Shown here piece by piece: positions 52,083-58,807 of a DNA stretch of 64,000 bases. The translations under genes were made by a program, and so were the position numbers. How positions within the stretch are numbered: position 1 is the stretch's first letter; the number at the start of each line of letters is the position of its first letter. Below the pieces are notes generated by a model. It had not been told where the DNA came from and made no database searches. It saw only the letters and a program-made list of their open reading frames with translations. The stretch spans positions 1 to 64,000 of the forward strand of contig CANQBQ010000004.1 in NCBI GenBank assembly GCA_947589045.1, in the 5' to 3' direction. Source of the DNA: an uncultured Clostridia bacterium. GTDB lineage: Bacteria; Bacillota; Clostridia; Monoglobales; Monoglobaceae.

Positions 52083-52219
52083 TGGCGGACATAGCGTTTT
52101 GCCCGCAAATTTCAAGACTTTTATCTATCATATAATTTATAATAAACTCTCGTGTTGTTACTTATAATCCGTTGATGTATTTACTGCAGTTTGATAAAAT
52201 CAACTTTGGGTGATGTTTG

Positions 52220-52465
52220 GTGATAAAAAGAAAAATCGGTGTTCGCATACGCGAATTACGCACTGCTACGGGTTTAAGTCAAGAAAAGTTTGCATTAAAA
52301 ATCGGTATGGATAGAACTTATCTTGCATCGGTAGAACTTGGAAACCGAAATATATCAATAGTTAACCTTGAAAAAATAGTAAGAAATATTAAGAGTCATA
52401 ATTCCATAGCTGACATGGTATATACCGTGGGGGAAAGAGATCGTCAGTGGTTTTTAAAACAATAA
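52220..52465 (+). CDS. XRE-family HTH protein next to an orphan methyltransferase
   Basis: 81 aa. Helix-turn-helix: VRIRELRTATGLSQEKFALK then MDRTYLASVELGNRNISIVN, typical of controller or xre-like regulators that accompany DNA methyltransferases. GTG at 52220 follows GGGTGAT; TTG at 52217 is an alternative. It is convergent with the Dam-like gene, their ends 25 bp apart. The sequence is more AT-rich than the host genes. Confidence 0.75.
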   Translation: MIKRKIGVRIRELRTATGLSQEKFALKIGMDRTYLASVELGNRNISIVNLEKIVRNIKSHNSIADMVYTVGERDRQWFLKQ

Positions 52466-52490
52466 AAATCTATAACAAATCTCCCTGTAA

Positions 52491-53612
52491 TTAAACAGGG
52501 AGGTTTGTTATCAGTAGATGTTCAGCACTTCGTTCATTGCGACTGCGTACATTATAAGTATAACGATTATTAAACGACAGTATATTAAATTTGTCTTTAT
52601 ATAAAGAATATATAAAATCCGTATTTTCAATAACAAGTATAAATTGAGCAACTGTTTTTTTCAATGTATATGCTAATCGCTCCTGATCTTCTTTTGTAAA
52701 GTCTTTTCCCTCGTAATCCGAAAAATCTGTGTCATACGGTGGATCCAAAAATATAAAATCCCTGCTTGTAAGATGCGAATCTTTAATAAAATCCTCAAAA
52801 TCCAAACAATATATATCCGTATTTTTAAATATGTTTTCTACCGCTTCGTTAAACATATTTTCTATTTTACTTTTAAAATTTTTCTTGTTATATGTCATTC
52901 CTCCATATGGAATGTTAAACTCGCCCTTTCGATTATATCTGAACATCGAACCGTAACAATATTCGCGAATAAAACAAAAATTTGCTATTTTATACTGCAA
53001 GGACGGCGTTTTAATTCTTTCAAGGTTTATATCATTATATACCTTTCTGAAATACATATAATAACCGCTTGCAAAACCTGTGATCAAATTGTTTTTTAAG
53101 TCCTCGGCAGAAAAGGATTTTCTTTCATTGTTCTTAATTGTACGCTGTATTTTATCGGAAACCGATTCTTTTATTTGCTGTAAAAACTCTTTTTTATCCA
53201 ATAACAATTTTTCTGAAAATCCGGAGTTGATTTTATCTGTCCAGCTTAATAACAACTCGGATAACTGCAACTCCATTTCGTCTTTGTTAATAATTTTACT
53301 TGACAATTTGCTATACAAATTAAAAACATCCATATAATTGTCACTACATATATCAATAAGATTACAAAAACTATTATTATAGCATAAAAGCATATCATAA
53401 AATAAACGATCTTGACTTTTTATCAATCCGTAAAACTGAATGAGTGATTGAGATATATCATTAACAGCCGCTCTGCAAGGATTAAGATAAAAAAACAAAG
53501 CTCCGCCTCCAAAAAAGGGTTCAATATATCTATCATATTTCGGAATATATTGTTTTATTTTATTTATTTCTCCCGATTTTCCACCCGGCCATTTAATTAA
53601 TGGATTCATCAT
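52491..53612 (-). CDS. D12-class DNA adenine-N6 methyltransferase (Dam-like)
   Basis: About 373 aa. SAM-binding motif PLIKWPGGKSGEI at the N-terminus, motif YIEPFFGGGALFF, and catalytic DPPYDTDFSDYEG. Family length is usually 260-300; here an insert of about 100 helical residues (about 100-190) enlarges the protein. Start at one of two tandem ATGs at 53612 and 53609. The gene is distinctly AT-rich, and no restriction endonuclease is visible beside it, so it is an orphan methyltransferase or the remainder of an RM system. Probably horizontally acquired. Confidence 0.9.
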   Translation of the reverse strand: MMNPLIKWPGGKSGEINKIKQYIPKYDRYIEPFFGGGALFFYLNPCRAAVNDISQSLIQFYGLIKSQDRLFYDMLLCYNNSFCNLIDICSDNYMDVFNLYSKLSSKIINKDEMELQLSELLLSWTDKINSGFSEKLLLDKKEFLQQIKESVSDKIQRTIKNNERKSFSAEDLKNNLITGFASGYYMYFRKVYNDINLERIKTPSLQYKIANFCFIREYCYGSMFRYNRKGEFNIPYGGMTYNKKNFKSKIENMFNEAVENIFKNTDIYCLDFEDFIKDSHLTSRDFIFLDPPYDTDFSDYEGKDFTKEDQERLAYTLKKTVAQFILVIENTDFIYSLYKDKFNILSFNNRYTYNVRSRNERSAEHLLITNLPV

Positions 53613-53770
53613 ATTCACACTCACAAAAAATTCTTTAGTTATTGTATCATATTTATTAAAAATCTTCAAGCCCAAAACAAAATTACATACGCCTATTTAA
53701 TAAATCAATATAGGTAATTCTCTATTTCTTTGCAAAACATAAATAACACCGCTTAGGCTGCACCGTTCTA

Positions 53771-58067: not shown

Positions 58068-58096
58068 TTGACAAATTAAGGATATGGTATTATAAT
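58068..58096 (+). promoter_or_regulatory. Perfect consensus promoter of the putative antitoxin RNA
   Basis: TTGACA, exactly 17 bp, TATAAT. No reading frame follows before the terminator at 58155-58189, so it should drive a short RNA starting near 58103. Confidence 0.88.
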
Positions 58097-58106
58097 GAGT
58101 ATAGAG

Positions 58107-58141
58107 AAAAGGCAAGACCTTTGAAAAAGCGGTTATGCCAT
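58107..58141 (+). repeat. Direct-repeat pair (antitoxin side)
   Basis: AAAAGGCAAGAC (58107-58118) and GCGGTTATGCCAT (58129-58141). Reverse-complement copies lie at 58322-58333 and 58286-58298 in the toxin leader. Confidence 0.85.
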
Positions 58142-58154
58142 ATAGGGTAGAAAA

Positions 58155-58189
58155 AATAACCCCTATTACGAGCGAGGGGTTATTTTTTT
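58155..58189. terminator. Shared bidirectional terminator of toxin and antitoxin RNAs
   Basis: AATAACCCCT pairs with AGGGGTTATT, loop of 10, with T7 on the plus strand and T6 on the minus strand. The toxin stop codon lies inside the stem. Confidence 0.9.
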
Positions 58190-58248
58190 ATAGAGATGAT
58201 TATTAGAAGCATAATTATCATAAAGGAAATTATGTAATTCAAATCCAT
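58180..58248 (-). CDS. Putative type I toxin, 22-aa hydrophobic peptide
   Basis: The peptide starts MDLNYIISFMIIM, continues with a run of Leu and Ile, and ends in SIKK. This is one transmembrane helix with an acidic start and basic tail, as in small membrane toxins. AAAGGAG lies 11 nt before the ATG at 58248; another ATG 6 bases upstream is too close to it. A promoter at 58361-58389 and a 5' hairpin at 58335-58356 lie upstream. An overlapping 67-codon frame begins about 15 bases upstream of the predicted transcription start and is not credible. No sequence family is claimed; toxicity is inferred from the architecture. Confidence 0.7.
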   Translation of the reverse strand: MDLNYIISFMIIMLLIIISIKK

Positions 58249-58285
58249 AAGCCATCACTCCTTTCCCGAAAAAATCAAGAAATGG

Positions 58286-58333
58286 ATGGCATAACCGCCC
58301 GCGAATAATCGCTGTCAAAGAGTCTTGCCTTTT
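58286..58333 (-). repeat. Direct-repeat pair (toxin mRNA leader side)
   Basis: On the minus strand AAAAGGCAAGAC (58333-58322) and GCGGTTATGCCAT (58298-58286) occur in the same order as in the antitoxin RNA. Confidence 0.85.
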
Positions 58334-58334
58334 T

Positions 58335-58356
58335 ATGTCGGAAAAATTTCCGACAT
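58335..58356 (-). promoter_or_regulatory. 5' hairpin of the toxin mRNA
   Basis: ATGTCGGAAA and TTTCCGACAT form a 10-bp stem with a 2-base loop, at or next to the predicted 5' end. A similar stabilising 5' structure is known in fst RNA I. Confidence 0.6.
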
Positions 58357-58360
58357 AAAT

Positions 58361-58389
58361 ATTATACAACGCTTGGCAAAAAACCGCAA
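58361..58389 (-). promoter_or_regulatory. Sigma-A promoter of the toxin mRNA
   Basis: TTGCGG, 17 bp, TATAAT on the minus strand; start expected near 58354, giving an mRNA of about 200 nt. Confidence 0.7.
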
Positions 58390-58433: not shown

Positions 58434-58706
58434 TTACTCGGACAAAGCGTTGCGAAGCTCGCTCAGCTTTTCAAAACAACTTTCACATATGTGGAAGTTG
58501 TTTATTTTTATTGTGGAATTGTCGGAATTGCAAAAGCAGCACCTGTCGCCCTTTTTGGTGATTATTATTTCGTGCCCGTTTGCCTCTATATTCAGGTATT
58601 CGCCGTCTTTAATATCAAAACGTTTTCGTATGTCAATGGGAATTACCACTCGCCCCATGGATTGCACACATATCTCACCTTTTATGCTTACGTCGTCATA
58701 TCTCAC
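58434..58706 (-). CDS. AbrB/SpoVT-type regulator with C-terminal zinc ribbon
   Basis: 90 aa. Swapped-hairpin DNA-binding domain: EICVQSMGRVVIPIDIRKRF, then DIKDGEYLNIEANGHEIII. A zinc-ribbon tail follows (CCFCNSDN and HICESCFEKL), an architecture common in clostridial AbrB-like proteins. GTG at 58706 follows AAGGAGG at 8 nt; the longer frame to 58799 would cross the leader hairpin. The leader carries a terminator-like hairpin directly upstream of the ribosome-binding site, so transcription attenuation is possible. Confidence 0.85.
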   Translation of the reverse strand: MRYDDVSIKGEICVQSMGRVVIPIDIRKRFDIKDGEYLNIEANGHEIIITKKGDRCCFCNSDNSTIKINNFHICESCFEKLSELRNALSE

Positions 58707-58730
58707 TTCCCGCGCCTCCTTTTTTGCAAT

Positions 58731-58807
58731 AAAAAAATGCATAACAACATTTACGAAGTTATGCATCCCAAAAACGCACGACTTCCAAAATGCTACCACA
58801 CATTCCT
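58731..58807 (-). promoter_or_regulatory. Attenuator-like leader element, copy A
   Basis: On the minus strand a conserved stretch (AATGTGTGGTAGCATT...TTTTTGGGATGCATAAC) ends in the hairpin TGCATAAC/GTTATGCA and T7, just before the AbrB ribosome-binding site. A 14-codon frame (MCGSILEVVRFWDA) spans the element and stops inside the hairpin. Confidence 0.55.

What the first reader, a model, noticed from the sequence alone, without database searches (positions are those of the whole stretch)
58068..58389. Undescribed Fst-like type I toxin-antitoxin module
Two convergent promoters, one a perfect TTGACA-17-TATAAT, drive an RNA of about 88 nt rightward and an mRNA of about 200 nt leftward that end in one shared bidirectional terminator. 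The leftward mRNA encodes a 22-residue hydrophobic peptide with a strong Shine-Dalgarno. Two repeats (AAAAGGCAAGAC and GCGGTTATGCCAT) occur in the same order in the 5' parts of both RNAs, and a 5' hairpin lies at the start of the mRNA. This is the full par/fst architecture of pAD1 (converging RNA I and RNA II, DRa and DRb, common terminator), here chromosomal and with a shorter peptide that I do not recognise. The peptide lies wholly outside normal ORF length cut-offs.
Basis: partly seen in the sequence, partly recalled or inferred. Interest (0 to 1): 0.92.

Follow-up and report, generated by a model that had tools for sequence, protein, structure and literature searches.

The report
New gut-Clostridia type I toxin–antitoxin family

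Summary
I found about 100 modules in uncultured gut Clostridia, with eight mRNA-leader copies in this genome. Each has convergent promoters (antitoxin side 12/12 consensus in 83 of 88), a shared terminator, a sequestered Shine-Dalgarno and a 21–38-residue hydrophobic peptide under purifying selection (pN/pS 0.14–0.36). A covariance model built without this genome finds the window leader at E=3.4e-12. In the sister species the same locus keeps the RNA gene and has lost the whole toxin gene.

The Fst reading fails. pAD1 needs DNA direct repeats, which give complementary stretches in the two RNAs. Here the repeats are inverted, so both RNAs carry the same sequence. It folds within each RNA into one hairpin (GGYA·A·GACC/GGTT·A·TGCC). 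The peptide has no Fst similarity, and Rfam, Pfam and NCBIfam give nothing above cut-off.

Best reading: a new type I toxin–antitoxin family with one conserved RNA chassis and interchangeable toxins. The shared hairpin changes in concert in both RNAs of a module, but energies do not support trans pairing through its arms. How it works is open, and toxicity and expression are untested.

The parts
58068..58096 (+). antitoxin promoter, TTGACA-17-TATAAT
   Evidence: 12/12 in 83 of 88 family members
58103..58190 (+). predicted antitoxin RNA, about 88 nt (ends inferred from promoter and terminator)
   Evidence: intact in sister species L046
58111..58139 (+). shared hairpin element, antitoxin copy: GGCA-A-GACCTTTGAAAAAGCGGTT-A-TGCC
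   Evidence: fold -9.4 kcal/mol; pattern; CM E=0.0011
58151..58188 (.). shared bidirectional intrinsic terminator (14-bp stem, U-tracts both ways)
   Evidence: I2; its U-tract on the antitoxin strand is the reverse complement of the toxin's last codons (IKK-stop)
58180..58248 (-). toxin ORF, MDLNYIISFMIIMLLIIISIKK
   Evidence: family pN/pS 0.14-0.36
58251..58290 (-). SD-sequestering hairpin (GCCATC...AAAGGAG...GATGGC)
   Evidence: sequence; SD unpaired probability 0.05 in window; 0.215 vs 0.417 with shuffled linker in 92 leaders
58258..58264 (-). Shine-Dalgarno AAAGGAG
58288..58329 (-). shared hairpin element, mRNA copy, with an inner hairpin GCGA/TCGC
   Evidence: fold -12.1 kcal/mol; CM R2 E=3.4e-12 for 58246-58333
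58332..58359 (-). 5' end hairpin of the toxin mRNA (13-bp perfect stem)
   Evidence: I5; TCGGA..TCCGA hairpin at the same place in many relatives
58361..58389 (-). toxin promoter, TTGCGG-17-TATAAT
   Evidence: toxin -35 weaker than antitoxin -35 across the family

Best explanation
A chromosomal type I toxin-antitoxin module of a new family. The leftward mRNA encodes a 22-residue membrane peptide. Its weak promoter, 5' hairpin and SD hairpin keep it poorly translated. The rightward RNA of about 88 nt, from a perfect promoter, is the antitoxin. Its 3' part is fully antisense to the end of the toxin mRNA through the shared terminator, and I infer that pairing starts there and leads to duplex cleavage. 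Its apical loop carries an anti-SD-like CCUU/CCUC that may also contact the translation start (weak evidence). Both RNAs begin with the same hairpin, which evolves in concert within a module. I infer that it sets stability or joint recognition of the two RNAs rather than pairing one with the other. Shown here: the anatomy, its conservation, purifying selection on the peptide, SD sequestration in predicted folds, the promoter imbalance, and loss of the toxin with retention of the antitoxin. Inferred: toxicity, repression, and the role of the shared hairpin.
For: About 100 modules with the same plan. Antitoxin promoter 12/12 in 83/88, mean -35 score 5.92 vs 4.47 for the toxin, p=1e-14. Peptide pN/pS 0.14, 0.24 and 0.36 in three groups. 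SD sequestered (p=2e-13). Syntenic sister locus L046 keeps the antitoxin gene and has lost the toxin's leader, start and promoter; further solitary antitoxins L014, L048, L050, L080, L175, L196; promoterless toxins beside intact antitoxins L244, L245, L047, L124. Several toxin types ride on the same leader. Independent CM detection E=3.4e-12. Antitoxin loop vs translation start -7.98 kcal/mol against -6.58 +/- 0.23 for shuffled starts.
Against: No transcript, toxicity or repression data. G000:C8:72034 (L243) is a toxin gene with a promoter and no convergent antitoxin, which a strict TA would not tolerate unless another copy protects in trans. Apart from the terminator overlap, no cognate-specific complementarity was found (p=0.034 overall, 0.43 in variant loops). 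Most hosts are metagenome-assembled genomes.
Confidence: 0.78

Rival explanations
1. A true member of the Fst/par family: RNA II pairs with RNA I through DRa/DRb and the terminator.
For: Convergent promoters, shared terminator, SD-sequestering stem and 5' helix are the same (PMC7472228).
Against: Repeats are inverted in DNA, not direct; cognate trans duplexes are not favoured; no U-turn enrichment in terminator loops; peptide without PXXXG and without an Fst hit.
Confidence: 0.04
2. Not a toxin: a small membrane peptide (for example a regulator or stress peptide) under ordinary antisense control, the shared hairpin being a protein-binding or stability element.
For: Toxicity is untested; one copy (L243) stands without a convergent antitoxin; the hairpin's 3' arm is nearly invariant, as expected of a bound element.
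Against: Antitoxin retained while the toxin gene is lost or loses its promoter; unrelated hydrophobic peptides on the same leader; small hydrophobic peptide with charged C-terminus as in type I toxins (PMC6563280).
Confidence: 0.13
3. Same TA, but the shared hairpin is a 5'-3' lock: toxin mRNA reading through the terminator carries the reverse complement of the antitoxin element at its 3' end and pairs with its own 5' element, as in hok mRNA.
For: Explains why the elements match within a module even at unpaired positions (GGTTAGCC in both RNAs of L283 and of L265; GGTTGTGCC in both of L290); U-tract weaker in the toxin direction, 5.2 vs 7.9 T.
Against: About half of the modules still have 7 or more T in the toxin direction; gene conversion between the inverted repeats would give the same pattern; L250/L284 change internal-loop size in both RNAs without sequence identity.
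Confidence: 0.15
4. The matching elements are only a by-product of template switching or gene conversion between inverted repeats, with no joint function.
For: Short inverted repeats 144-203 nt apart; coordinated change includes a position unpaired in cis.
Against: Conserved over at least 11 families of the class; 5' arm varies almost only in ways that keep pairing; cis pairing kept in divergent families f5 and f6.
Confidence: 0.12

Closest known systems
par/Fst (pAD1, chromosomal EF0409, PepA1/SprA1)
   Same: convergent promoters, common bidirectional terminator, 5' helix, SD sequestered by a 5' stem-loop, small hydrophobic peptide
   Different: inverted instead of direct repeats (identical, self-pairing element in both RNAs instead of complementary DRa/DRb), unrelated 22-24 aa peptides without PXXXG, no U-turn enrichment
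C. difficile type I modules (CD2517.1-RCd8, CD2907.1-RCd9, CD0956.2-RCd10 and others)
   Same: Clostridia, convergent toxin and antitoxin genes, hydrophobic N-terminus, lysine-rich C-terminus (PMC6563280)
   Different: 34-59 aa toxins without similarity reported to others, long complementary region, CRISPR or prophage association; no shared 5' hairpin seen in the passages of that review that I read
TxpA/BsrG and Hol-Tox/PepG1-type toxins
   Same: single short membrane helix with terminal lysines; the MEYVYIM type scores weakly to Hol_Tox (E=0.025) and PepG1 (E=0.0045), both below cut-off
   Different: 22 aa, below family cut-offs; RNA chassis different
hok/sok (leader-ORF coupling)
   Same: a sub-branch (L087, L250, L275, L281, L284, L285) has an overlapping leader ORF before the toxin start
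   Different: unrelated peptide and RNA layout; 5'-3' locking not shown

Membership tests
Fst/par | convergent promoters with shared bidirectional terminator | tested here: met
Fst/par | DNA direct repeats DRa/DRb giving complementarity between the RNAs | tested here: not met
   repeats inverted; trans duplex of arms not cognate
Fst/par | Fst-type peptide (PXXXG core, conserved Trp, charged tail) or Fst family match | tested here: not met
   sequence lacks the core; no Fst family hit at E<=10 for four peptides incl. the window's or E<=1 for ten more
Fst/par | U-turn in a terminator loop | tested here: not met
   18% of antitoxin and 15% of mRNA loops, shuffles 14% and 16%; not universal in the family either (PMC7472228)
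Fst/par | SD sequestered by a 5' stem-loop | tested here: met
   (predicted folds)
type I toxin-antitoxin (general) | antisense RNA complementary to the toxin mRNA | tested here: met
   3' overlap by construction over the terminator, about 40 nt; extent of transcripts inferred
type I toxin-antitoxin (general) | small hydrophobic peptide, translated | tested here: met
   coding constraint pN/pS 0.14-0.36; translation itself not observed
type I toxin-antitoxin (general) | peptide is toxic and the RNA neutralises it | not testable with these tools
   indirect only: antitoxin kept, toxin lost
Hol_Tox (PF16935) / PepG1 (NF041589) | score above curated cut-off | tested here: not met
   14.9 vs 23.3 bits; 16.6 vs 70 bits
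any Rfam RNA family | match at gathering score | tested here: not met
   window and 15 loci, none

The most novel reading that the evidence does not exclude
A toxin-antitoxin family organised around one palindromic RNA hairpin that toxin mRNA and antitoxin both carry and that co-evolves within each module: a 'twin-element' control (a common binding partner or a 5'-3' lock of the toxin mRNA) on which unrelated toxins are exchanged, a regulatory principle not seen in the described type I systems I could check.
Probability: 0.35. Interest if true: 0.87.

Novelty: new variant of a known kind. Interest (0 to 1): 0.72.

Why it matters
It adds a large, unannotated family of probable type I toxin-antitoxin modules in uncultured gut Clostridia, up to eight leader copies per genome, in loci that length cut-offs hide. 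It also shows an RNA chassis conserved better than its toxins, with the same hairpin in toxin mRNA and antitoxin, which gives a concrete test of how antisense control evolves and of what these copies do on chromosomes.

Tried and rejected
Fst/par membership: rejected on repeat orientation and peptide. Trans pairing of the shared arms as the specificity device: cognate no better than non-cognate (51% of non-cognate mRNAs are better; p=0.71). U-turn in terminator loops: no enrichment. Covariation on alignment A1 alone: mostly one-sided changes, 4 cells with both sides changed, weak; stronger support only came from divergent families f5 and f6. Known riboswitch or RNA family: none. Plasmid or phage record with the module: none, though five IMG/VR contigs carry the element. 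Hits outside the class: one weak hit, L293, with no module around it. First search with GTTATGCC alone was uninformative. Literature searches found no description of this family in the held library; T1TAdb and the 2009 par-family paper were not held. The conservation of the antitoxin element is partly a result of how the loci were found; the mRNA side and the CM searches are independent of that pattern.

Full report
Observation. The leftward promoter has a perfect -10 but a poor -35, TTGCGG. Dinucleotide shuffles rarely give such repeats (at least one in 8 of 2000, two or more in 2 of 2000), and both RNAs fold about 5 sd better than shuffles.

What the repeats really are. They are inverted in the DNA, so the two convergent RNAs carry the same sequence, not complementary ones. 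Within each RNA the first repeat pairs with the second: GGCA-A-GACC with GGTT-A-TGCC around an A.A mismatch. The antitoxin copy closes a short loop; the mRNA copy encloses a further hairpin.

It is a family. A simple pattern found further copies in the same genome and in relatives (67 of 148 genomes with a match, with pairs of convergent copies about 170-200 nt apart; reversed-pattern controls gave mostly 0-1 per genome). A pattern scan of 84,980 species genomes gave 106 stretches, almost all uncultured Clostridia, Oscillospiraceae, Monoglobus and Ruminococcus-like MAGs, many from ruminant and rabbit guts, and a scan of IMG/VR gave five contigs. Parsing gave 141 distinct antitoxin elements, 101 with a clear convergent toxin ORF by automatic rules. 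The toxin-side leader was not used to pick those loci, yet it is strikingly uniform: 5' hairpin, AAAAGGTAAGACTGAAAACAGTGTAAAAGCTGGGCGGTTATGCC, ATCATCTCC...GGAGGTGAT, GCTT, ATG. A covariance model of that leader hits 25 of 51 genomes of the order (the weakest hits, L256 and L257, are not modules), 37 of 391 of the class at E<=1e-4 in at least 11 families, and nothing genuine outside the class (the single weak hit L293 has no module around it). Eight leader hits lie in the window's own genome. A second model built without any own-genome sequence finds the window at E=3.4e-12 and the antitoxin copy at E=0.0011.

The peptides. Most are 21-24 aa: type A (MDKEYIILFMIILLLLVISIKK; the window's peptide belongs here), A' (MEYVYIMIYIITLIVLIITIKK), B (MGKYILRIIFLIIVFLIALTKKVR), others (MTVESMILVLIVILFTLYVIKK, MVTEYLLFLTLIFFILVTIKK). 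Family f5 has a different, 36-38 aa, peptide on the same kind of leader. pN/pS is 0.24, 0.14 and 0.36 in three groups, so the ORFs are under coding constraint. No family in Pfam or NCBIfam reaches its cut-off. In most type A modules the last codons, IKK-stop, are the reverse complement of the antitoxin terminator's U-tract.

Expression logic. The antitoxin promoter is 12/12 consensus in 83 of 88 modules; the toxin -35 is weaker (mean 4.47 vs 5.92 matches, p=1e-14). The SD is sequestered in predicted folds: unpaired probability 0.215 against 0.417 when the stretch before it is shuffled, lower in 81 of 92 modules; 0.05 in the window. The RNAs overlap at the terminator, giving perfect antisense of about 40 nt.

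Decay pattern. In the sister species the same locus, with 92% and 97% identical flanks, keeps the antitoxin promoter, hairpin and terminator, while the toxin leader, start codon and promoter are replaced by a 47-bp hairpin. Other loci have solitary antitoxins (L014, L048, L050, L080, L175, L196) or an intact antitoxin beside a toxin whose promoter and 5' half are replaced (L047, L054, L124, L244, L245). Among the copies checked, the clear case of a toxin with its own promoter and no convergent antitoxin is L243 in the own genome, where related antitoxins exist elsewhere; L279 looks like a second, degenerate one. This asymmetry is what a toxin-antitoxin pair predicts.

The shared hairpin. In 88 leaders the 3' arm GGTTATG is almost constant, and the 5' arm varies nearly always between letters that keep the pair. 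Statistical covariation within the close set is weak, but families f5 and f6 keep the pairing with changed letters in both RNAs (GAGCA..TGCTC; AGC..GTT). Changes tend to occur in both RNAs of the same module: GGTTAGCC in both of L283 while L284 of the same genome has GGTTATGCC in both; the same in L265; GGTTGTGCC in both of L290 and, but for the last letter, of L292. Exceptions exist (L251, L260, one L084 module). A within-genome permutation gives p=0.0014 for both arms, 0.003 for the 5' arm and 0.11 for the 3' arm alone; trans-duplex energy shows no cognate preference, p=0.71. That set was partly curated by hand. So the element is coupled within modules, but not by simple pairing of one RNA's arm with the other's. 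A 5'-3' lock in read-through mRNA, a common partner and gene conversion all remain. The antitoxin loop is more complementary to the translation start than shuffled starts (-7.98 vs -6.58, sd 0.23), mostly through an anti-SD CCUC, with little cognate specificity.

Comparison. par/Fst has the same layout but rests on DNA direct repeats DRa/DRb (PMC7472228), which is tested and not met; the peptide test is not met either. C. difficile modules share orientation and peptide character only (PMC6563280). No description was found in the held papers, with the caveat that T1TAdb could not be consulted.

Verdict. A new family of probable type I toxin-antitoxin modules with a new regulatory feature. Toxicity and regulation are untested.

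Noticed in passing
L243 (own genome G000:C8:72034-72121): Toxin leader and ORF (MVTEYLLFLTLIFFILVTIKK) with promoter but no convergent antitoxin; related antitoxins sit at L244 and L245 beside toxins whose promoter is replaced: possible protection in trans.
   Followed up: partly
L047, L054, L058, L124, L157, L244, L245, L252: Toxin 5' halves replaced by unrelated, often repeat-like sequence, with junctions clustered just before GGGCGGTTATGCC; mechanism unknown.
   Followed up: no
L087, L250, L275, L281, L284, L285: Sub-branch with an overlapping leader ORF (MKSKH.. type) starting at the good SD, the toxin ORF (MAKKLL.. type) starting inside it in another frame: hok/mok-like coupling.
   Followed up: partly
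window 58180-58190: The toxin's C-terminal Lys-Lys-stop codons and the antitoxin terminator's U-tract are the same DNA; terminator and toxin tail constrain each other.
   Followed up: partly
window 58434-58799(-): Small AbrB/MazE-like DNA-binding domain protein (PF04014, E=2.9e-8) right beside the module.
   Followed up: no
window 58738-58766: Perfect inverted repeat ATGCATAAC...GTTATGCAT inside the 5' part of the longest reading of the AbrB-like ORF; not part of the module.
   Followed up: no
window 52217-53675: XRE-like ORF next to a D12-class adenine methyltransferase (PF02086, E=1.1e-37) in a stretch of core genes.
   Followed up: no
L208, L209, L210, L211, L212 (IMG/VR): Five viral-collection contigs hold the antitoxin element; four of them were parsed with a type B toxin, so some copies may travel on phages or prophages.
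   Followed up: no
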